Assembly: GCA_000974665.1 (NCBI GenBank)
Contig: BBSY01000003.1
Coordinates: 372,001 to 436,000 of the forward strand
From: an alpha proteobacterium U9-1i
GTDB lineage: Bacteria > Pseudomonadota > Alphaproteobacteria > Caulobacterales > Aquidulcibacteraceae
DNA length: 64,000 nucleotides
Reading direction: 5' to 3'
The notes below the pieces were generated by a model, which made no database searches, was not told the DNA's origin, and worked only from the letters and a program-made list of their open reading frames with translations. Made by a program: the position numbers and the translations under genes. This document shows positions 24,937-45,848 of this stretch, piece after piece (position 1 is the stretch's first letter; every line of letters starts with the position of its first letter).

Positions 24937-25012
24937 GCCTGGGTAGCTCAGTTGGTAGAGCAGCGGATTGAAAATCCGCGTGTCGCTGGTTCGATTCCGG
25001 CCCCAGGCACCA
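24937..25012 (+). tRNA. tRNA-Phe (GAA)
   Basis: 76 nt with CCA encoded. Acceptor arm GCCTGGG pairs with CCCAGGC; the D and TPsiC arms (GGTTCGATTCC) are normal, and the anticodon loop ATTGAAAAT gives GAA. The 3' half is the target of the integrated element: its last 17 bases plus the next T recur at 45703-45720. Confidence 0.97.
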
Positions 25013-26203: not shown

Positions 26204-27550
26204 TTGACCAACGCAGCCTTCATAAGCTGCTCCGGCGAGGACCTGGAGCAAGCTAAGGTATTGGAAAATTTACTCGACCACGCTGGCCTTCCCGCTTGGG
26301 TCTATACGAAGCCGCTCACCGGATCGCAGTTTCCGACTGAAATTACGGAAGCGATCACGACGTCCTCTTGTGTGATCGTTCTGGTGTCGCCGTCGTCAGC
26401 CTCGTCGGCGTGGGTCGGAAGGGAACTGCATTTCGCGCAGGAGAATGGAATCCCCATTGTTCCGGTGCTGGTGAAGCCGACGCCGACGAACAGCGCCTTG
26501 CATCTACGGATCGCCGGCATGTCGCGCATCGACGCCACCAAGGGGTTTGCCGGTGAAGCGTTCGACGAGTTGTGTCGGGCAGTGAAGGCCCACTACAGAC
26601 GTCTCAATCCGATCGTAGCGGTCATGAACATGAAGGGTGGCGTCGGCAAGACGACCCTCAGCGCGAACATCTTCGGCGGTCTGTTTAAGTGGCGGCACAA
26701 GAACGTGCTGCTTGTGGACCTGGACCCTCAGTACAACCTGACACAGTTGTTGGTCCACCAACGAACGCACCTAGCTCTTGTTGAGCAGGACAGAAGCGTC
26801 ATCAGCGCGTTCGAACCTGGTCGCCCCTTAGGTAGAGAGTCACCAACGAGGGAGCTTACGAAAATTTCGACGTTCGACGGTGCCCCGATCGATCCCACGG
26901 AAATTGCACATAGACTTGAGTTCGATCCTGACAGCCGCGCTCGCTTCGATTTAATCCTCGGCCAATTCGAGATCGCCAAGTACACGCTTCCGCAAAATAC
27001 GAGACGCGTCGATGCCTGTATGGCTTACTTCAAACGCTTTCTCGACTTGGCCCGCAGCAAATACGATCTTGTCGTGATCGACGTCAGCCCTGCCAGTTCG
27101 CACCTGACGCTGGCTGCCGTGAGTGCCGCCACTCACGTCCTAGCTCCTGTTCGCCCGGACAAGTATTCCTTACGAGGGCTGAAAGCGATGCGACGGCTCA
27201 TGGATGAGCTTTTTGCTCTGGAAGAGCAGCCAGAATTTCTCGCGGTAATGAACGATGTCGCGCCAGACTCCCCCACCGATGTGGAGGAAGACATCCGCAA
27301 CGATCGGGAATTCGGGGCCAGCCTGCTGAAGACCATCATTCCTCACAGCCGGTACTTTTTCGCGAGAAATACAGGTGCGGTTCAGAATCCCGCTGAACGA
27401 TTGGCTATCAACGCTAGAGGCTGGCATTCTTCGAACATACAAGACGTCCTCCGTACTGCAGGAGACGAACTCATGGAGCGGGTAAGCGGCCATGCGGCCA
27501 CGATCGATCGAAATGTTGGAGACACTGCGGAAGTCAACCAAGAAATATAG
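26204..27550 (+). CDS. TIR-ParA fusion protein
   Basis: 448 aa, TTG start with CGGGGGAC about 5 bases ahead; the TIR domain begins at once (NAAFISCSGEDL). Residues 1-130 are a TIR domain: FISCS, DW-like GLPAWVY, SPSSASSAWVGREL with W70 and the catalytic-type Glu74. Residues 136-430 are a ParA/MinD-type ATPase: deviant Walker A KGGVGKT (144-150), DLDPQYNLT (172-180), VVIDVSPASSHLT as Walker B region, and the APVRPDKYSLRGL segment. ParA proteins dimerise with ATP and bind DNA; TIR domains cleave NAD or make signalling nucleotides. First gene of a six-gene operon, so a defence ATPase-effector or sensor is inferred. A ParB-type partner is not obvious. Confidence 0.85.
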   Translation: MTNAAFISCSGEDLEQAKVLENLLDHAGLPAWVYTKPLTGSQFPTEITEAITTSSCVIVLVSPSSASSAWVGRELHFAQENGIPIVPVLVKPTPTNSALHLRIAGMSRIDATKGFAGEAFDELCRAVKAHYRRLNPIVAVMNMKGGVGKTTLSANIFGGLFKWRHKNVLLVDLDPQYNLTQLLVHQRTHLALVEQDRSVISAFEPGRPLGRESPTRELTKISTFDGAPIDPTEIAHRLEFDPDSRARFDLILGQFEIAKYTLPQNTRRVDACMAYFKRFLDLARSKYDLVVIDVSPASSHLTLAAVSAATHVLAPVRPDKYSLRGLKAMRRLMDELFALEEQPEFLAVMNDVAPDSPTDVEEDIRNDREFGASLLKTIIPHSRYFFARNTGAVQNPAERLAINARGWHSSNIQDVLRTAGDELMERVSGHAATIDRNVGDTAEVNQEI

Positions 27551-27920
27551 CGCCGACGAGTTGATGGCGTTTGTTGACGATCTCCGTAAGACCAGTCCTG
27601 ACCAGATTAGGTTGCTCGTCACCCCACCAAATAGTGGTGCGAGTACGCGATCTCGCGCGGCTCCGAAGAAGCCGGTTGATCCCTTCGTCAAGAAATTGGA
27701 TGGCGTTCGGAAGAAGGCCGGCATGAAGGCCAAGGACGCTGTGGCGGCACTAACCAACATACAGAAACAATCGAGCACAGTCGCCGGCGGATCAAAGACG
27801 TTCGCGGGAATGATCAGCGTTCTTCGATCTAGTGTTTCGGATGCCGATCTTGAGGACGCTTTTCGCGCAGCGGCGCAGGAGTTCGAGAACGAGTATTCGA
27901 CGCGATACGACATGTCGTGA
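27492..27920 (+). CDS. Small charged partner of TIR-ParA
   Basis: 142 aa, overlapping the end of the TIR-ParA gene by 59 bases, so co-translated; ATG 27513 is an alternative start. It is rich in Lys/Arg/Asp/Glu and predicted helical, with a basic central linker (STRSRAAPKKP) and a second helical part (EDAFRAAAQEFENEY). By position it could fill the place of a ParB or an adaptor for ParA. No family recognised. Confidence 0.6.
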   Translation: MRPRSIEMLETLRKSTKKYSADELMAFVDDLRKTSPDQIRLLVTPPNSGASTRSRAAPKKPVDPFVKKLDGVRKKAGMKAKDAVAALTNIQKQSSTVAGGSKTFAGMISVLRSSVSDADLEDAFRAAAQEFENEYSTRYDMS

Positions 27921-27946
27921 CGCGAACGGCAAGGTAGGAGGCACCG

Positions 27947-28546
27947 ATGCGAATCTTCTTTTCTCTTTCACCAGCGTTCGCTCAATCAAGCGAGTATGAC
28001 GCCGGCGTTCGACGGATGGCCAAACACTTCGATCTTACGCCCGTCTTCGCGCACGACGCCCCCGCAGGCAGTGAGGTTACCGAGTGGATTTCTACGTCGT
28101 TGGAAGATTGTCAGTTCGCGTTCTTCGATTTCACGGGTCTGGCGGCAGACGTGCTGCTGGCGTACGGTGTCGCCACGCAGCACGACGTCATTACGCACGC
28201 TCTCGTCGATCACGAAAAGCATCGAAAACACGCCGGGAGTTCTGAATCCACACCGTTGGCGAGTGCCTTAATTTCTAAGGCATCCCGGTTTCATGATGCT
28301 GATGGCTTCCAGCGCCAAGCACACATGTTCTTGGAAGCTCGTCTCGGCGCCAAGGCGCTGTTCGACAAAGCATTTGTATCCCACATCAAGGAAACGATCG
28401 GCAAGAAGGGGCCGATCTACATGCGCCAACTTGCACAACAAGTCGGAAGACCGATGGAGACGGTTCAGCCCATCGTCTATGAGCTTGTTCGGGATGGGAG
28501 CGTGAAGAAGACCGGTGACACGCGCTGGACCCGATACAGCAGCTAG
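27947..28546 (+). CDS. TIR/deoxyribosyltransferase-like protein with winged helix
   Basis: 199 aa, ATG 27947 preceded by GGAGG at good distance. Residues 1-90 look like the nucleoside-deoxyribosyltransferase/TIR-type fold (FFSLSP at the N-terminus; DFTGLAADVLLAYGVATQ at 61-78). In the family the last motif reads DxTgxNxNVxxExG; here the expected Glu is Ala72. It is therefore probably a binding, not catalytic, domain. Residues 130-195 form a winged helix (GPIYMRQLAQQVGRPMETVQPIVYELVRDGSVKKTG), so it may bind a nucleotide and DNA. Third gene of the operon. Confidence 0.65.
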   Translation: MRIFFSLSPAFAQSSEYDAGVRRMAKHFDLTPVFAHDAPAGSEVTEWISTSLEDCQFAFFDFTGLAADVLLAYGVATQHDVITHALVDHEKHRKHAGSSESTPLASALISKASRFHDADGFQRQAHMFLEARLGAKALFDKAFVSHIKETIGKKGPIYMRQLAQQVGRPMETVQPIVYELVRDGSVKKTGDTRWTRYSS

Positions 28547-28638
28547 TGCAGCAGCGAAGAGGTAGCGTTCAGGCATTCACGCTCCGCTTGTGTCCATTGA
28601 ATGAGCCGCTATCCTGAGTAGAAATTTCGGATTCGCTC

Positions 28639-29688
28639 ATGGACTCTCTCGACCTAATTCGAAGCTTGCAGCGGCGCATGCCGTGGGCGCTTGCACGAAA
28701 GCTCTTCGGGGCACTCGGGATCGTGAAGAGCCAGGGGTGGGACTCTACCCTTGCCGCCATTGAGTCCGGCGAGCCTCTTTCCGACGATGTCGTCGCGAAG
28801 CTCAAGACCGCACTCGACGATCATATCCTCTATGGTGAGAAGCTGGTCAGATTTTACGAACTGACTGAGTCCGAAGCTGCTGTGTTGCGGAAGCGTATTC
28901 AGTCAGAAGAGATAACGAGCGGACTGATCAGCGACCGTTTTCCGCTGCTGCTTCCCCAAAACGAACTCGAAAAGCATGAGTTTCTTGATCCCGTCCCGGT
29001 CGGTCGAATTATTCGGGACGAAGATACCGCGCTTGTGTTCGGTGCCGCTCGTCGAACCACGTTTCGCGTTCCGCTCGACATTGAATTTGTTCCGGTCGAA
29101 GCAAGGGATTACTTTAGCGGCTATTCTGAACTAGTTGGCATCCGTGATGTCCGACTTCAGACGCTCGATGTGATCTCCGTTCACACAACGAAGCCCGTCG
29201 TCGAGGTTCGTTGCGATTTTCCCGAAGGCATGACTGGCGAGGCCTTGGCGGTGTCGATCGCTCATGCTCACAACTTCATCTCCGAGACGATCGGAGAAGA
29301 ACGGGACGCGCTCAACCTGTTCGAAGCGATGGGTAAGATGTTCCGAGCGAAGGACGAAGGCACCGTCGTAGAAGCAGCTTTCACCACACAGACCGCGTCC
29401 ATTAAGCATGAAAGAATGCGGCGGCGTCGGTACAGCCTGAGAGAGGAGCCGTATCACATGGCCGGAAGGGAGGCCGTCCAAGACGCCTTGGAGGTCTTCA
29501 AGCTGGCTATACGATGGGATGTCGAGGTTCAGGAGGGACTGGTCACGATCCCTGAGGCCTTTTTTAGCTCGACCGTCAAGATGCTGAGCGGAAAGACGCC
29601 GCCAGTCCTCTACGATGTAACAATCTCAGGCTGCCTGTCTAAAGTAGACTTCGAGTATGCGCGCAGCCGAATTCTCGCCTATGTATGA
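28639..29688 (+). CDS. Hypothetical operon protein, 349 aa
   Basis: No family recognised. It starts with a short helical region (LQRRMPWALARKLF), has a Glu/Leu-rich helix (VLRKRIQSEEITSGLISDRFP), a beta-rich centre (ISVHTTKPVVEVRC) and a mixed C-terminus. No membrane segment, no cysteine motif, no nuclease signature seen. It follows the previous gene by 92 bases and is only 3 bases ahead of the next, so it is in the operon. It could be a scaffold or a second effector; I cannot say. Confidence 0.6.
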   Translation: MDSLDLIRSLQRRMPWALARKLFGALGIVKSQGWDSTLAAIESGEPLSDDVVAKLKTALDDHILYGEKLVRFYELTESEAAVLRKRIQSEEITSGLISDRFPLLLPQNELEKHEFLDPVPVGRIIRDEDTALVFGAARRTTFRVPLDIEFVPVEARDYFSGYSELVGIRDVRLQTLDVISVHTTKPVVEVRCDFPEGMTGEALAVSIAHAHNFISETIGEERDALNLFEAMGKMFRAKDEGTVVEAAFTTQTASIKHERMRRRRYSLREEPYHMAGREAVQDALEVFKLAIRWDVEVQEGLVTIPEAFFSSTVKMLSGKTPPVLYDVTISGCLSKVDFEYARSRILAYV

Positions 29689-29691
29689 GAC

Positions 29692-30108
29692 ATGTCGGAC
29701 GTAGACGATCTCCGCCGCGAACTTGAGAGACGATGGTCCAGCCATACAGCGTACGTGTCCTGTGAAGCGATCTTCACTTACGTTTTATCGGCTGCCCCGA
29801 GCAATCTGCGACATCTGACGTTTCTCGACTTGGCCCACGTGGCGTCGAAGTCAGATGTCGATGATGAACTGTTGATGGCCCTGAGCATTCTCACGAATGC
29901 TCCAGTGCCGGTCTTAACTCCACACTTCTCACTAATCGACGATGAAGACCGAGAGTTCGAACTCGACGAACTTGACGCTCTCTCTTTCCGGCGCAGCGGC
30001 GTGCTAGTGCATCCGAAAACTGGTTTGTTACTCGATGAGCCGGATAAGCACATCGTGCCATTCTTTGCGGTTTCGGATGGTTTCCTGAAGTTGCGGGAAA
30101 CGGCGTGA
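29692..30108 (+). CDS. Hypothetical acidic operon protein
   Basis: 138 aa, strongly acidic in the middle (LIDDEDREFELDELD). Starts 3 bases after the previous stop and overlaps the nuclease gene by 4 bases (GTGA). No motif recognised. An acidic DNA-mimic or nuclease-inhibitor role is possible on charge alone, but that is speculation. Confidence 0.6.
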   Translation: MSDVDDLRRELERRWSSHTAYVSCEAIFTYVLSAAPSNLRHLTFLDLAHVASKSDVDDELLMALSILTNAPVPVLTPHFSLIDDEDREFELDELDALSFRRSGVLVHPKTGLLLDEPDKHIVPFFAVSDGFLKLRETA

Positions 30109-30722
30109 CCAGCTTTACGTATCAAGACCTGATGCTTATGGCCGCGGGAAATCGTCCTCGCGAGATCGTCGTCAAACTCATGTTCGCGTCCGACTATTCG
30201 TCCTTTGTCGAATCCGTAGAGGACGCCATCGATCACATAGCGGATCGCATGAGTGAGAATCCCCAACTTCGGCAAGAGCGGGAAGAGGATGAGTTATCGA
30301 TCGACATCGTCGATCAGTTGAAAGCCATGTCCTTCGACGCCGAGCATGACATGACGATTGGAGGTCATGGTGACATCGTAGTGAGAGGTCGGGGTAGTTT
30401 CCTCTGGATTGGTGAAGCGAAGAAGCACAGCAGCTATCCTTGGCTTCTCAAGGGCTACAATCAACTCACTACCCGTTACGCTTCTGGGCTTGAGACCCAG
30501 GCGGTTGGCGGACTGATTGTCTACTCGTATGGCCAACGCGTCGATCAGGTAATGGAGAACTGGAAGACGTTCCTGGATGAGAACGCGACGGTCGAGGGCT
30601 TCGGTGAGGGTGGACGTAGTGCGTGTTTCCGTTCGACCTACCTGAGCGAGCGGACAGGCATTCTGTGCACAGTGCGCCATCTTGGAATTTCGTTGTATTT
30701 CGACCCTAAAGATCGAGCGTAG
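30105..30722 (+). CDS. PD-(D/E)XK nuclease-like protein
   Basis: 205 aa, GTG start overlapping the previous gene. The core motif is present: GGHGD with Asp90, a strand, then Glu104-x-Lys106 (FLWIGEAKKH), followed by a helix with Gln120 (GYNQLTTRYASG). This is the restriction-endonuclease fold active site (D ... ExK ... Q). The rest is alpha/beta with no extra domain. It ends the six-gene operon. It is likely a DNA-cutting effector; metal-dependent cleavage has to be tested. Confidence 0.7.
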   Translation: MTSFTYQDLMLMAAGNRPREIVVKLMFASDYSSFVESVEDAIDHIADRMSENPQLRQEREEDELSIDIVDQLKAMSFDAEHDMTIGGHGDIVVRGRGSFLWIGEAKKHSSYPWLLKGYNQLTTRYASGLETQAVGGLIVYSYGQRVDQVMENWKTFLDENATVEGFGEGGRSACFRSTYLSERTGILCTVRHLGISLYFDPKDRA

Positions 30723-31038
30723 AGCGTTTGCGCGGGCGACTACAAACGCACGCCACAAGCCACTACAATTCGACCGAAGATGATTTGGGATTTGGTGAGG
30801 AAATGTTTGCGGGTTGCGTGTCCTTCCCTCTCCGCCAGCCTTGAGAACCGCGAGCCGTTTAGCCGATGAATGTCCGTTGTCCGACGGGGCAACCTCGAAG
30901 ACCGATTTTGGGATCGAACTGCGCGACAGCCTGATGTTTCGATCCTATGGCCTTTGAGGGGACGTCGTCGCGATCTCCCGACAGGCGCGTTTGAAGTCGC
31001 CTATTCGGATTCGGCTGGGAAGCTCCTATGTTTGCGGC
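30723..31038. other. Gap between operon and next cargo gene
   Basis: About 316 bases with no convincing gene on either strand. The open frame on the minus strand here is a shadow. The stretch probably holds the terminator of the operon and the promoter of the next gene, but neither could be read. Confidence 0.4.
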
Positions 31039-32289
31039 ATGAAGAGCTACGTTGACGGCCTCATAGACAGCGAGTTGCCCCGCGCCGTGGAGAACGTGGG
31101 CGTGAAGATGCTTCACGTCACCACACACGCGCAGCAAGTGGGCGCGCTCGGAGGCAGTCGCGTCTTCATCGATTATCAAACGGCCATCGTCAAAGGCATC
31201 GAGGAATATGGTGGGCTGTTGCGTCAGCGTCTCGCTCAGTTCGATCCTGCACATGCTCCACTCAACGATGCAGACTTCGATAAGGCGGAAGCTTCTATCG
31301 ACAAGCTCCGACACGAAGCGCTCGCGCTCTATGAAAAGAAGTGCGAAAATCAGAAGGCATTCGGCGGCAGCGGGCTTCCGTTTGAAGAGGCGCGCCTGAC
31401 CGCCGCCGTCGATAGCGCCAGGAATGAAATAGCGGGATTGCACGCCTCGTTCCGCTCACAACGGCCCGGGAGCGATGAATGGGTGAGCGCGGCGGCCGCT
31501 CTTGAGATTCTGGAGCCTAGCTTTTCCGTTTACACCGCTGCGAAGACGATTTGCGAGCGCGCCCACCATGGATTGATCCAAGCGCGCGCCGATGTTTATC
31601 GAGAGGGCAACGCCGGCCCGTTGAAGGATTGCGATGTGCCCCCGGACTTCTGGTGGGCCGAAGGCGAGGTCGCCCTTGAACAGAATTGGGGGGCGGGTGA
31701 TTTTTCGACGTGGACCCCCAACAGCTACAATCGCATCGAACTGAAAGCCTTTGGCGTCAAGTTTCGGCGCGCCGACATAGAAAAAGTGTTGCCCTTGCGA
31801 GCCAACGCGAAGCCCTCGGCATCAATCCTTAACGACGAGGACAAGGAAGTCATCAAGCGGCTTACGCCCCTGGTGCAATCCGCCGCGCTCTCCTACGAGC
31901 AGGCGATGCGCGATCTCGCTGACGACAACAGAATTTCCTTTCGCGGCCCGGCCCTTGAATTGCGCGAGGCCCTTCGTGAAGTTTTAGATAACCTCGCTCC
32001 CGATGCAGAAGTCATGGCCGCTCCCGGATACAAGCCGGAAAAGGACGAAAGCGGGAAAGATCGCACGAAGCCGACGATGGCGCAAAAAGCGCGCTTTATG
32101 ATGCAGAAGAAGCATTCTTCACCAGCGGCGGAGCAAGCGATTTCCGCGTTTGACGGTGCGATCGCGAAACTAACGCGCGCCGTTTACACGCTCTCCTCTC
32201 AAGCGACGCACGTCGCGCAGGAGCGGGATTCGGTGAGACAAATTCGACGCTATGTTGTCGTCTTGCTGCATGAAATGCTGCCGCCATGA
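31039..32289 (+). CDS. pPIWI-associated-nuclease-like hypothetical protein
   Basis: 416 aa from ATG 31039; an earlier start adds 16 poorly conserved residues. The N-terminal two thirds is helical. The C-terminal region (FRGPALELREALREVLDNL ... KPTMAQKARFMM ... FDGAIAKLTRAVYTLSSQATHV) resembles the domain described as predicted pPIWI-associating nuclease, though here it stands alone with no PIWI/RE partner nearby. The His in QATHV and the charged helices may form its site. Family call is by pattern memory, not by search. It is the last cargo gene on the plus strand. Confidence 0.5.
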   Translation: MKSYVDGLIDSELPRAVENVGVKMLHVTTHAQQVGALGGSRVFIDYQTAIVKGIEEYGGLLRQRLAQFDPAHAPLNDADFDKAEASIDKLRHEALALYEKKCENQKAFGGSGLPFEEARLTAAVDSARNEIAGLHASFRSQRPGSDEWVSAAAALEILEPSFSVYTAAKTICERAHHGLIQARADVYREGNAGPLKDCDVPPDFWWAEGEVALEQNWGAGDFSTWTPNSYNRIELKAFGVKFRRADIEKVLPLRANAKPSASILNDEDKEVIKRLTPLVQSAALSYEQAMRDLADDNRISFRGPALELREALREVLDNLAPDAEVMAAPGYKPEKDESGKDRTKPTMAQKARFMMQKKHSSPAAEQAISAFDGAIAKLTRAVYTLSSQATHVAQERDSVRQIRRYVVVLLHEMLPP

Positions 32290-37489: not shown

Positions 37490-38053
37490 TTAGGCGGCCT
37501 TCTTGGCCTCATCCAAAATTCTGTAGACACTTGCACGTCCAACCTTGAGGCGCTTCGCAATTTCGGTGGGCTTCACGCCATCGGCCTTCAGTTCAAGCAC
37601 CTGACTCGCTTTCGCACGGGCCGTTGGAGCGCGCCCCTTGTACTTGCCTTCAGCCTTCGCTTTGGCGACGCCTTCGCGTTGGCGTTCAAGCATGAGGGTG
37701 CGCTCAAACTCTGCAATGGAGCCCATGACTTGAAGAACCAGGCGGCCCGTGGCGTCCGCTGTGTTGAGCCCAAGGGACAGGACTACGAGGGTGACGCCCT
37801 TGTCTCGTAGCTTTCGTTCTATCAACAGCAGGTCTTCCAACGAGCGCGCCAATCGATCGGGCTTGGCAACGACGAATTGGTCACCTTCGCGGGCAAACTC
37901 CAGAGCCGCCTCCAGCTGTGGCCGCTTGGTCGCCACCGAAGACAGCTGTTCCACGAAGACCTTCTCACAGCCGGCCGCGTTTAGGTCGCGCTCTTGCGCC
38001 TCCAGGCCAGCTACCTGCTCGGTGGTTGATGTTCTCGCATAACCGATACGCAT
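37490..38053 (-). CDS. Serine recombinase (resolvase/invertase type)
   Basis: 187 aa, complete. Catalytic Ser9 (YARTSTTEQ), conserved Arg residues (KPDRLARSLEDLL), and GSIAEFERTLMLERQREGVAKAKAEGKYKGR, then a C-terminal HTH (KPTEIAKRLKVGRASVYRIL). This size is that of Tn3 resolvases and DNA invertases. It resolves dimers or inverts DNA at a nearby site; the repeats at 38103-38203, upstream of its start, are the likely place. An older copy is seen as a remnant at 25940-26081. Confidence 0.92.
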   Translation of the reverse strand: MRIGYARTSTTEQVAGLEAQERDLNAAGCEKVFVEQLSSVATKRPQLEAALEFAREGDQFVVAKPDRLARSLEDLLLIERKLRDKGVTLVVLSLGLNTADATGRLVLQVMGSIAEFERTLMLERQREGVAKAKAEGKYKGRAPTARAKASQVLELKADGVKPTEIAKRLKVGRASVYRILDEAKKAA

Positions 38054-38102
38054 GATGGGTTCCCTTCCACAGAAGCCCAGACATTCGACAGCCGAACGTC
38101 TC

Positions 38103-38203
38103 TCTCGCGACTCAGAGTCTGCGAGACAAAGATTCCCAAAGGGCTAAAATGGTTTGTGTGAGACGATTAGCGGTTGTCTCGCGAAAGCCTGCCTAGTGAG
38201 ACG
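38103..38203. repeat. GAGAC/GTCTC repeat cluster (possible res site)
   Basis: Five short related units: TCTCGCGAC (38103), GCGAGACAA (38121-38129), GTGAGACG (38158-38165), TTGTCTCGC (38174-38182, the complement of the second) and GTGAGACG (38196-38203). They lie directly upstream of the serine recombinase start and in the gap before the small membrane gene, where a resolvase site or operator is expected. Confidence 0.45.
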
Positions 38204-38214
38204 CAAGAAGTCCG

Positions 38215-38529
38215 CTAAATGCCGCGACAACGCACGCCAAGTTGGAGCATCTGAGCGTCGCTTGCCGCTTGGTCTGCAGAGTTGGCTGCGCGTGCTGCCT
38301 CGCTGCTGGCGGTCTGTGCTTCGTTCAGAATCTCTTCAGCGAGGGATCGAATTTCCGCGAGTTGGTCGCCGCCGGTCGTTGCATCATTCCTTTCACTGCT
38401 CAATTGCGCTTCAAGCCAAAACCCAGTGCCCAGCAACACCCATATAGTTGCACCCTGCAGGACGATGATGAGGCCAAGCGCGAGTGTAACGCCGGTAATT
38501 CCTCGTTTGATGTTCGTGAAGAAGCCCAT
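38215..38529 (-). CDS. Small single-pass membrane protein
   Basis: 104 aa from ATG 38529 with GGAGGG ahead; the longer frame to 38619 is not favoured. One membrane helix near residues 15-40 (VTLALGLIIVLQGATIWVLLG) and a Ser/Ala/Glu-rich helical tail likely to form a coiled coil (LAEIRSLAEEILNEAQTASSEAARAANSADQ). Function unknown. Confidence 0.6.
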   Translation of the reverse strand: MGFFTNIKRGITGVTLALGLIIVLQGATIWVLLGTGFWLEAQLSSERNDATTGGDQLAEIRSLAEEILNEAQTASSEAARAANSADQAASDAQMLQLGVRCRGI

Positions 38530-38548
38530 ACTCAACCCTCCCGGAAAG

Positions 38549-39133
38549 TTATTGTCGGGCCGCCCTGCGGGCCGCCCTCTGGCGGCGCTCGCGAGCCCGT
38601 AGGTCCCAAGGAAGTTCACATCTGGGATTCAGCGCATGCACGCCAAGCCCGTTACGCTGTGCTTCCGCTTGTTGTGCGGAGTAGGCTCCCCCGCTGTAAG
38701 CCTGATAGTCCCAGGCCCAGCCCTCCGACACCATGACAGCCCCAATGTCGCGACCTTCAACGAAGCACAACGCCACCGGCCGTTCGAAGTCGTCCACGTC
38801 ACGAAGTGAACAAATTGCTAGTCGGTTGCCTGCCACATCCTGGAGCGCAGCTGCGGCTAGTTCGCCTGCTTCCACACGGCCGCAGGATTGATTTCCCTCT
38901 GGCGCGTCGATGCCCCACAGCCTGACACGTAGCCTTCTTCCGGTATGCGTGGGCGCAAACGAAATCGTATCGCCGTCCGAGACAATCAAGCGGCCTTGGA
39001 TGGTGGTGTGGATGCTCTCGCTTTGAGCGCGTGCCTGTAGCGGCGAATACGTGAGGCACACTGCAACGATACCACACGCGGGTAGTGCGGCGGCCTGGAG
39101 CAGCCGAGCGTAGATGTTAAGTCTGACCATCAC
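38549..39133 (-). CDS. Secreted SNase-like thermonuclease
   Basis: 194 aa. N-terminal signal peptide (to about residue 36). Staphylococcal-nuclease-like (OB fold) domain: VSDGDTISF (Asp53/Asp55), RLWGIDAPEG with Arg71, and DDFERPVALCFVEGRDIGAVMVSEGWAWDYQ. Four cysteines (NQSCG, ICSL, ALCF, RCEL) could give disulfides. These enzymes cut DNA and RNA with Ca2+ and are often carried on conjugative elements, where they may clear entry DNA. The stop overlaps nothing; the small membrane gene follows. Confidence 0.82.
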   Translation of the reverse strand: MMVRLNIYARLLQAAALPACGIVAVCLTYSPLQARAQSESIHTTIQGRLIVSDGDTISFAPTHTGRRLRVRLWGIDAPEGNQSCGRVEAGELAAAALQDVAGNRLAICSLRDVDDFERPVALCFVEGRDIGAVMVSEGWAWDYQAYSGGAYSAQQAEAQRNGLGVHALNPRCELPWDLRARERRQRAARRAARQ

Positions 39134-43969: not shown

Positions 43970-45595
43970 TCATGTAAGTTGGATACGCGGGTACTTCTTT
44001 AGCTCGCGTTGAAGGATGGCGAAGCCTTTGTCGCCTTCAAGCTGATTATAGGCGTCGCCAACTGTCTCCGGTTTGTGGCCCTGAACGAAATCGCGGACGA
44101 CTTTATCCACGCCGGCGTGTAGCGCGTTTGTTTTCCACGTGTGCCGGAAAGCGTGCATGGGGCTGATGTCGGGATCATCTACGCCAAGGTCGCGGACCCA
44201 CTCTGCAAGCACCATGCGGGCCTTTTCAGCGGGGTGGCGGCGAGGGTTCGTTGGGTCTGTGTCTTCTTTGCGAAGCAAGTTCGGGTCATAGAAAAGTGGC
44301 CCCTTGGGAGCCGCCTTTACAAATTCAATGAAGCCCTGCTCGATGAGGTGCTCGTGGATTGGAATAGTGCGGGCCTCGTGATCCTTTATCGTGCCTGCGT
44401 CAGGTGTCAGGCACAAAGCCCAAGCGCCTTTGACTTGCTTCACGTCTTCCTTGCGTAGCTGGCAAATCTCACCGGGTCGCGCGCCCGAGTAGATCAGAAG
44501 CCAAGGCACCCAGCGCCGGCTGGCAATTCTGCGGGCAGTCATGCGGGGTGGAGTAGGGGCCACCGTCGCTTCTAAAATAGTCTTCAACTCTGAATCGCGG
44601 AAACTGCGTTCGCGCACCTTCACTTTGCGCTTAGCGGCGCTCGATGCTTTCAGTGACGTGAACGGATTATGCGACAGCTTGCGCTCGTTGACTGCCCAAT
44701 TGAAGACCGCCTTCGCGGCAACAACGTAACCCTCGTTCACGCTCTTGTCTGACAGACGCTTCCTAAGGTCTTCGCGCCATTTGAAAGCGTCTTCGTCGGT
44801 AAGTGATCCAGCATCCCGGCCGGGGAAGAACGTATCGAGCTGAGTGAAGATATTGCGCCAGCGAATTACTGTGTTCTTGGCAGGCTTGCTTGCGAGCACG
44901 TAGGCCGCAAACAATTCGGTAGGCCTCAACCCAGCTGCCTTGTTGCGGGTAGGAAAGCGCTGTGGGCGGGGGTCCGGTGTATAGTCACCACCCGACCGGC
45001 GCTTAAGCAGCACGAGGGCTGCGTTCAGGTCAGGTAGGAGCGCACTCAGAAATTCTTCGCGTGCCGAGGGCTTCAATTGTTCGCCGGAAATCGCAAGGAA
45101 GGCGTCTGCATTCGAGTTTTTGGCGATGACCGCCAGCACCTTTAGCCGGGCCTTCTGGTGGCCCTCCCAATCGAACCGCAACAGCCCGCCCGCACCGTCA
45201 TCGAAGTGCGCACGCCAGATGGCGTCCATGTCGTCTGCAAGGGCGTCCATCCATTGGTCCACTTTCAGGGTGTCTAGGATGGGTTCGTAGTGCTCAATGA
45301 ACCAAGTGTACCACCTGCCAGCCAGGGCGTGGGCTTCCTTGCGATTGAGGGTTCCACCCACGCCGTCTTGCTTGTCGCGGATTGCCTTGAACTGGGCTTC
45401 AATCGATGCGTGCCACTCGGCAAAGAGTGCCTTGGCATCTTGTTCGCGCTCCGACGCAGGAGCTGAGAACTTGGCTTCATGCCTTGGGCCGTTCGCCGTC
45501 GCATACGCATCCCGAATTGCCGTCGGGATAGCCTTGCGCGCCTTCCAGTTTCCAGAGGCAGGATCACGCTTTAGGGTCGTCGCACGCACGGGCAT
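43970..45595 (-). CDS. Tyrosine integrase of the tRNA-Phe element
   Basis: 541 aa, longer than the usual 400, as in the large island integrases. Core-binding region near 230-310, catalytic domain after 330. Catalytic set: Arg in IYSGARPGEI, HAFRHTWK (His and second Arg) and Tyr in VGDAYNQLEG. It integrates the element at the 18-bp core at the end of tRNA-Phe. It lies at the right end, reading toward the element interior, with arm-like sites directly upstream (45607-45632) and the right core 108 bases beyond its start. Confidence 0.92.
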   Translation of the reverse strand: MPVRATTLKRDPASGNWKARKAIPTAIRDAYATANGPRHEAKFSAPASEREQDAKALFAEWHASIEAQFKAIRDKQDGVGGTLNRKEAHALAGRWYTWFIEHYEPILDTLKVDQWMDALADDMDAIWRAHFDDGAGGLLRFDWEGHQKARLKVLAVIAKNSNADAFLAISGEQLKPSAREEFLSALLPDLNAALVLLKRRSGGDYTPDPRPQRFPTRNKAAGLRPTELFAAYVLASKPAKNTVIRWRNIFTQLDTFFPGRDAGSLTDEDAFKWREDLRKRLSDKSVNEGYVVAAKAVFNWAVNERKLSHNPFTSLKASSAAKRKVKVRERSFRDSELKTILEATVAPTPPRMTARRIASRRWVPWLLIYSGARPGEICQLRKEDVKQVKGAWALCLTPDAGTIKDHEARTIPIHEHLIEQGFIEFVKAAPKGPLFYDPNLLRKEDTDPTNPRRHPAEKARMVLAEWVRDLGVDDPDISPMHAFRHTWKTNALHAGVDKVVRDFVQGHKPETVGDAYNQLEGDKGFAILQRELKKYPRIQLT

Positions 45596-45632: not shown

Positions 45633-45702
45633 CCTCCTAAGAAACCATTGAAAACAGCGAATTCTTTTTAAAACAAGGGGCCTGGGAAAGCACTCTGTCT
45701 AG

Positions 45703-45720
45703 TCCGGCCCCAGGCACCAT
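45703..45720 (+). other. attR core
   Basis: Exact 18-bp copy of the tRNA-Phe 3' end (TCCGGCCCCAGGCACCAT). It closes the element; the bases before it belong to the element and those after it are host sequence. Confidence 0.9.
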
Positions 45721-45848
45721 TTTTCCTTCGCAATCTGAATATCTTGGCGCGGCGCGCGGGTTTGTCCTTGCTGCGCGAGTTCCTGCTAGCGGCTCTCCGG
45801 GAAGGCGATATGTTGTCCACCCGATCCAGACCAGCCGGAGACGCCCCC

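What the first reader, a model, noticed from the sequence alone, without database searches (positions are those of the whole stretch)
26204..30722. Six-gene TIR-ParA operon: candidate undescribed anti-phage system
Six plus-strand genes with overlaps or short gaps: TIR-ParA fusion, small charged protein, TIR/deoxyribosyltransferase-like protein with winged helix, two unknown proteins, PD-(D/E)XK nuclease. I know no named defence system with this set. TIR, restriction-type nuclease and ParA-type ATPase in one operon on a mobile element fit a defence or element-competition role. The co-transcription is inferred from spacing.
Basis: partly seen in the sequence, partly recalled or inferred. Interest (0 to 1): 0.85.

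Follow-up and report, generated by a model that had tools for sequence, protein, structure and literature searches.

The report
Three-gene defence cassette beside TIR-ParA pair
The six neighbouring genes are not one new system: the last three form a widespread mobile cassette, probably an anti-phage system already tested in the laboratory but without a known mechanism, and it lies next to an unrelated TIR-ParA gene pair on an integrated element.

Summary
The six plus-strand genes are real, but they look like a composite.

(1) D-E-F (28639-30722) is a conserved three-gene cassette: same order and strand in 76 of 80 loci found through F (the 4 misses lie at contig ends), from viral contigs, plasmids and genomes. 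In E. coli P2-like prophages it sits between gpA and the portal gene, a published defence hotspot. A, B, C or G relatives were seen beside it in 0 of 98 loci. It is probably Rst_3HP, the three-gene anti-P1 system of Rousset 2022 (PMC9122126); I could not check the accession.

(2) A-B is a separate TIR-ParA plus small-partner pair found elsewhere in this order, with D-E-F in 0 of 50 loci.

(3) C is an orphan: winged helix supported, TIR/deoxyribosyltransferase call not.

New here: F carries a PD-(D/E)XK plus QxxxY pattern; D models at pLDDT 94 with a weak RdgC/CENP-L-like match; in Rhizobium phaseoli an E domain is fused to an MmeI restriction-methyltransferase, followed by F, without D. This suggests that E couples exchangeable DNA-recognition modules to nuclease F.

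The parts
24937..25012 (+). tRNA-Phe, attachment site of the element; its 3' end recurs at the other end
   Evidence: ARAGORN; exact 17-base repeat
45698..45734 (+). second copy of the tRNA-Phe 3' end (attachment repeat)
   Evidence: 17 bases exact at 45703; 37 nt at 78%
43970..45595 (-). tyrosine recombinase (integrase)
   Evidence: Pfam Phage_integrase 28.5 bits, cut-off 27.1
26204..27550 (+). A: TIR domain fused to ParA-type ATPase
   Evidence: TIR_2 and AAA_31 over cut-off; KGGVGKT and the Glu of WVGREL present
27492..27920 (+). B: small partner protein overlapping the end of A
   Evidence: profile of 12 partner ORFs next to other TIR-ParA genes finds it at 2e-15
27947..28546 (+). C: orphan protein with C-terminal winged helix; N-terminal part unidentified
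28639..29688 (+). D: first gene of the D-E-F cassette, phrog_12777; inferred DNA-sensing subunit
29692..30108 (+). E: second gene of the cassette, phrog_11490; inferred adaptor
   Evidence: fusion to MmeI in L076
30105..30722 (+). F: third gene of the cassette, phrog_9664; PD-(D/E)XK-like nuclease with QxxxY motif
30991..32289 (+). G: downstream gene with C-terminal predicted pPIWI-associating nuclease domain; separate from the six, start possibly at 31039
   Evidence: Pfam pP_pnuc_1 53.3 bits, cut-off 26.3; PADLOC Aga_Nuclease 3e-9

Best explanation
The stretch is a small defence island on a tRNA-Phe-integrated element, made of independent modules: the pair A-B (TIR-ParA and its partner), an orphan regulator-like gene C, the cassette D-E-F, and a separate nuclease gene G. 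D-E-F is a self-contained anti-phage system, probably Rst_3HP. Inferred mechanism: D binds a feature of invading DNA, E is the adaptor, and F is the nuclease that cuts DNA once recruited. Shown here: the three-gene conservation, its prophage and plasmid homes, the conserved nuclease pattern of F, and the replacement of D by an MmeI methyltransferase/target-recognition module fused to E in Rhizobium. Inferred, not shown: that D binds DNA, that E bridges D and F, that F cuts phage DNA, and that the window copy is active.
Confidence: 0.6

Rival explanations
1. All six genes form one system: the TIR-ParA and C sense or regulate and D-E-F executes, a composite assembled once in this lineage.
For: Same strand, short spacings and similar base composition (GC 0.535-0.561 for the six); TIR catalytic Glu and Walker motif of A intact.
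Against: 0 of 98 D-E-F loci have A, B, C or G matches (single-sequence blastp, weak for B and C), 0 of 50 TIR-ParA loci have D, E or F. D-E-F is complete elsewhere.
Confidence: 0.08
2. D-E-F is a plasmid or prophage maintenance or exclusion module (for example against competing plasmids) rather than anti-phage defence.
For: Present on a 6.1 kb plasmid, large plasmids and prophages; beside a ParA gene on a Moritella plasmid.
Against: Also in P2-like prophages in the published defence hotspot and in chromosomal islands; a nuclease-bearing trio fits defence better.
Confidence: 0.2
3. D-E-F is a toxin-antitoxin-like abortive system in which F is the toxin and D and E hold it off until infection.
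For: Tight coupling of three genes; nuclease-like last gene.
Against: The E-F unit also follows an MmeI DNA-recognition enzyme, which fits DNA targeting better. Not tested.
Confidence: 0.25
4. A-B is a housekeeping positioning or signalling pair, not defence.
For: TIR-ParA in 59 of 249 genomes of the order at E <= 1e-20, often at the same chromosomal site beside a gene whose product begins like MTWTPSSWRxxPAKHIP; the TIR Glu is replaced in 9 of 20 relatives.
Against: The window copy and 11 of 20 relatives keep the Glu; the window copy and L061 lie beside integrases.
Confidence: 0.5

Closest known systems
Rst_3HP (Rousset et al. 2022, PMC9122126; name used by DefenseFinder, PMC9090908)
   Same: Three genes without clear Pfam domain, in the P2-like gpA-portal hotspot of E. 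coli, mostly in prophages, thinly spread over many Enterobacterales species (passages read).
   Different: Not compared by sequence: the accession is in a supplementary table that I could not read. The window copy is on a tRNA-linked element beside other genes.
Thoeris (TIR protein ThsB with effector ThsA)
   Same: A's TIR domain scores over the ThsB_TIR cut-off (28.5 against 21.2 bits).
   Different: TIR is fused to a ParA ATPase and no ThsA-like gene was found among the genes scanned.
MmeI-type (type IIG/IIL) restriction-methyltransferases
   Same: In R. phaseoli an MmeI-like enzyme carries an E domain and is followed by F.
   Different: The window and the other loci have D in its place and no methyltransferase in the cassette.
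RdgC / CENP-L and CENP-N fold
   Same: Best PDB matches of the D model.
   Different: High rmsd, no sequence-profile support; D has its own conserved residues.
ParA/MinD ATPases
   Same: A has AAA_31 over cut-off and a KGGVGKT motif.
   Different: N-terminal TIR domain; partner B is not ParB-like in any library hit.

Membership tests
Rst_3HP | three adjacent genes without clear predicted domains | tested here: met
   D-E-F; no Pfam family over its cut-off in the window copy or in 10 proteins of four relatives
Rst_3HP | found in the P2-like hotspot between gpA and gpQ | tested here: met
   4 of 4 opened of 28 E. coli hits, and phage KP12; the window copy itself is elsewhere
Rst_3HP | sequence relation to the cloned, validated genes | not testable with these tools
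   accessions are in Table S2A, supplements not readable; six protein accessions of relatives gave no paper
Rst_3HP | protection against phage P1 | not testable with these tools
   needs an experiment
PD-(D/E)XK nuclease with QxxxY motif (F) | D ... E-x-K and Q-x4-Y residues | tested here: met
   65-66 of 66 distinct sequences; partly selected by the patterns
PD-(D/E)XK nuclease with QxxxY motif (F) | fold or family profile | tested here: inconclusive
   window F no family; Enterobacter F reaches PDDEXK_9 with 17.4 bits, cut-off 25.5; no model made of F
RdgC (D) | family profile PF04381 / profile similarity | tested here: not met
   no Pfam family for D at E <= 1; hhalign probability 0.1 against 20 RdgC proteins
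RdgC (D) | fold | tested here: inconclusive
Thoeris | ThsB TIR protein plus ThsA effector | tested here: not met
   TIR present, ThsA-like gene not found among the 9 and 8 proteins scanned
ParA (A) | AAA_31/ParA domain with deviant Walker A motif | tested here: met
ParA (A) | ParB-type partner and centromere site | not tested
   only library scans of B, without a hit over cut-off
TIR or nucleoside deoxyribosyltransferase (C, N-terminal part) | domain profile | tested here: inconclusive
   no Pfam match; hhalign 0.1 and 1.5 against small, roughly assembled alignments; model pLDDT under 50 there

The most novel reading that the evidence does not exclude
D-E-F is a modular DNA-targeting nuclease system: E is a general adaptor that couples exchangeable DNA-recognition modules (the RdgC/CENP-L-like protein D, or an MmeI methyltransferase with its target-recognition domain) to the nuclease F. 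The D form would recognise foreign DNA without any methylation mark, and the MmeI form would be a restriction-modification enzyme with a second, recruited nuclease.
Probability: 0.35. Interest if true: 0.7.

Novelty: new member of a known kind. Interest (0 to 1): 0.5.

Why it matters
If D-E-F is Rst_3HP, this gives a validated but unexplained system its first domain-level hypothesis: a PD-(D/E)XK-like nuclease, an adaptor, and a DNA-sensor candidate with a model good enough to plan experiments. The MmeI-E-F arrangement makes the adaptor idea directly testable. If it is not Rst_3HP, then a trio spread over prophages, plasmids and cyanobacteria is still undescribed. The result also shows that neighbouring genes in a tRNA-linked island should not be read as one system.

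Tried and rejected
Six-gene system: rejected. PADLOC, NCBIfam and Pfam gave no named system for D, E or F. D as single query found nothing in genome contigs (54 pattern matches, none confirmed) or in phages, and 1 plasmid; D in 299 genomes of the order: own only; F profile in 245 genomes of the class: own only; so sampling near the window alone would have called the cassette unique. C: no relative in plasmids or viral contigs, 1 weak match besides its own in 240 genomes of the class, no PDB relative below E 0.2. F, D and E profiles against PDB sequences: nothing convincing. RdgC by profile: no. B as single query was too weak (3 of 60 genomes, two of them at E about 0.007-0.008); the link came from position and a 12-sequence profile. 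Further MmeI-E-F cases: 17 plasmid records for this F; I opened more of these and found D or remnants; none in viral contigs; only the two R. phaseoli plasmids cover most of the query. Enterobacter D-E-F DNA against E. coli: no match. Literature: Rst_3HP in 4 papers (spelling variants add none); TIR with ParA and Caulobacter: 0, a broader TIR/ParA listing of 83 papers, 15 shown, was seen as titles and abstract starts only; RdgC with anti-phage, MmeI with accessory nuclease and three-gene with QxxxY: listings only, the shown rows hold nothing on this trio. Promoter scan uninformative. Not examined: 24 of 28 E. coli hits, most neighbours of the 80 loci, the empty tRNA-Phe site in relatives. The model of C was not searched because its confidence was too low.
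Full report
What is there. Seven plus-strand genes run from 26204 to 32289; the finding covers the first six. I call them A to G. The mean codon score in frame beats the other five frames for each of the seven. The genes lie on an element bounded by the tRNA-Phe gene (24937-25012) and a repeat of its 3' end at 45698-45734 (17 bases exact; 37 nt at 78%), with a tyrosine-recombinase gene at 43970-45595. GC is 0.578 inside against 0.638 and 0.644 in the flanks measured.

D-E-F is a cassette of its own. PHROGs recognises D, E and F as phrog_12777, phrog_11490 and phrog_9664 (E 1e-46, 4e-14, 8e-47), all of unknown function. The phrog_12777 profile is found in 5 of 398 genomes of the phylum, own included. 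A search through F gave 66 viral and 14 genome loci. Profiles of D, E and F place all three in order on one strand in 76 of 80. The four misses (L111, L129, L143, L145) lie at contig ends (ranges). In L103 and L122 the D match is a short ORF 410-418 bases before E, so D may be broken there. Many of these loci are near-identical copies and are not independent; with the window they hold 66 distinct F sequences. Of 7 more, 4 have the adjacent trio, one has F 1.3 kb after E, one has an unmatched gene in D's place and one holds only an F remnant.

The place in E. coli. A Klebsiella-phage copy of the trio matches 28 of 5,426 E. coli genomes, 6 of them over at least 80% of its length. I opened 4 of the 28; all 4 have the trio between the P2 replication endonuclease and the portal gene, and phage KP12 has it at the same place. 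Rousset et al. 2022 (PMC9122126; section 10 read whole, passages) describe exactly this interval as a hotspot of defence systems, and report one validated system of three genes with no clear predicted domain that protects against P1. DefenseFinder names it Rst_3HP and finds it mostly in prophages (PMC9090908, one passage). AllTheBacteria (PMC13370402, passages) finds it broadly spread but always rare among 27 Enterobacterales species; two other papers list it in Vibrio and Pseudomonas (PMC13249269, PMC13101515, one passage each). All this fits D-E-F. It does not prove identity, since the accessions are in a supplement that I could not read. I put the identity at about 0.65, by judgement.

The six genes are not one unit elsewhere. 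Single-sequence searches for A, B, C and G in 98 D-E-F loci gave no match (80 at E <= 1e-4; 18 at E <= 1e-3; the 7 loci were not searched for these). Such searches are weak for the divergent B and the orphan C. In the other direction, D, E and F profiles gave no match (E <= 0.01) in 50 loci around TIR-ParA genes, 20 of them 7.0-12.5 kb long and 30 about 4 kb or shorter, partly overlapping. A same-strand ORF of at least 80 aa ends within 60 bases before D in 4 of 72 loci, so D is usually the first gene. In the window C ends 92 bases before D, so read-through remains possible.

A and B. A carries a TIR domain and a ParA-type ATPase, both over their Pfam cut-offs. A relative is found at E <= 1e-20 in 59 of 249 genomes of the order and in 5 of 299 of the phylum, own included; the 2 of these 5 outside the order match only the ParA part. 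The window's genome has a second copy at 32% identity. B overlaps the end of A. I aligned 12 small ORFs that follow or overlap the end of other TIR-ParA genes; a profile of these without the window finds window B at 2e-15 as the top of 566 ORFs. So A-B is a conserved pair. The Glu that the TIR family uses for catalysis (recalled, from no call) is present in the window copy and 11 of 20 relatives and replaced by Q, D or A in 9; all 21 keep the KGG(V/I)GKT motif. I have no evidence for its function, and rate defence and housekeeping as about equal.

C. Relatives: none in plasmids or viral contigs, and one weak match besides itself in 240 genomes. The model has mean pLDDT 49.4; only the C-terminal winged-helix part (139-196) is better. 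The TIR or deoxyribosyltransferase label found no support in Pfam or in rough profile comparisons.

The Rhizobium case. On plasmid pRphaN261d of R. phaseoli (L076) F is preceded by a 1,089-residue protein with MmeI_N, MmeI_hel, MmeI_Mtase and MmeI_TRD domains over cut-off (PADLOC type IIG enzyme). Its residues 960-1084 match the E profile at 1e-15; 200 shuffled copies gave no match at E <= 10. There is no D. The D-x9-E-x-K pattern of MmeI's own nuclease (recalled) is present at residue 72. A second, near-identical plasmid has it too; no third was found. This one case suggests that E and F are a portable unit and that D fills the place of a DNA-recognition enzyme. Hence the model: D senses, E couples, F cuts. 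Each of these three roles is inference.

Verdict. The cassette is a new member of a known kind, probably of Rst_3HP, and the adaptor idea is the part worth testing.

Noticed in passing
L076:2687-6591 (Rhizobium phaseoli plasmid pRphaN261d): E-like domain fused to the C-terminus of an MmeI-type restriction-methyltransferase, followed by F, without D.
   Followed up: partly
window:30991-32289: Gene G with C-terminal predicted pPIWI-associating nuclease domain, right after the six genes; no pPIWI gene was noticed in the genes scanned nearby.
   Followed up: no
window:39346-40098 and 37490-39133: Hypoth_Ymh protein, resolvase and staphylococcal-nuclease-like gene on the same element.
   Followed up: no
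G000:C3:492810-493871 (L002, L068) and L052-L069: A widespread chromosomal TIR-ParA gene in this order, with the TIR Glu replaced in 9 of 20 relatives examined; no paper was found with the terms.
   Followed up: partly
L061:2292-6777: Another TIR-ParA plus partner pair beside an integrase gene and a second TIR-protein gene in an unnamed relative.
   Followed up: no
G000:C2:123135-123496 (L187, L188): A CAP12-type TIR match split over two frames in the window's own genome.
   Followed up: no
L206:3376-4146 (Moritella plasmid): An ordinary ParA-family gene on the opposite strand next to D-E-F.
   Followed up: no
L070 (CAKLQH020000040.1): A contig filed as Acinetobacter phage whose genes around D-E-F look chromosomal.
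   Followed up: no
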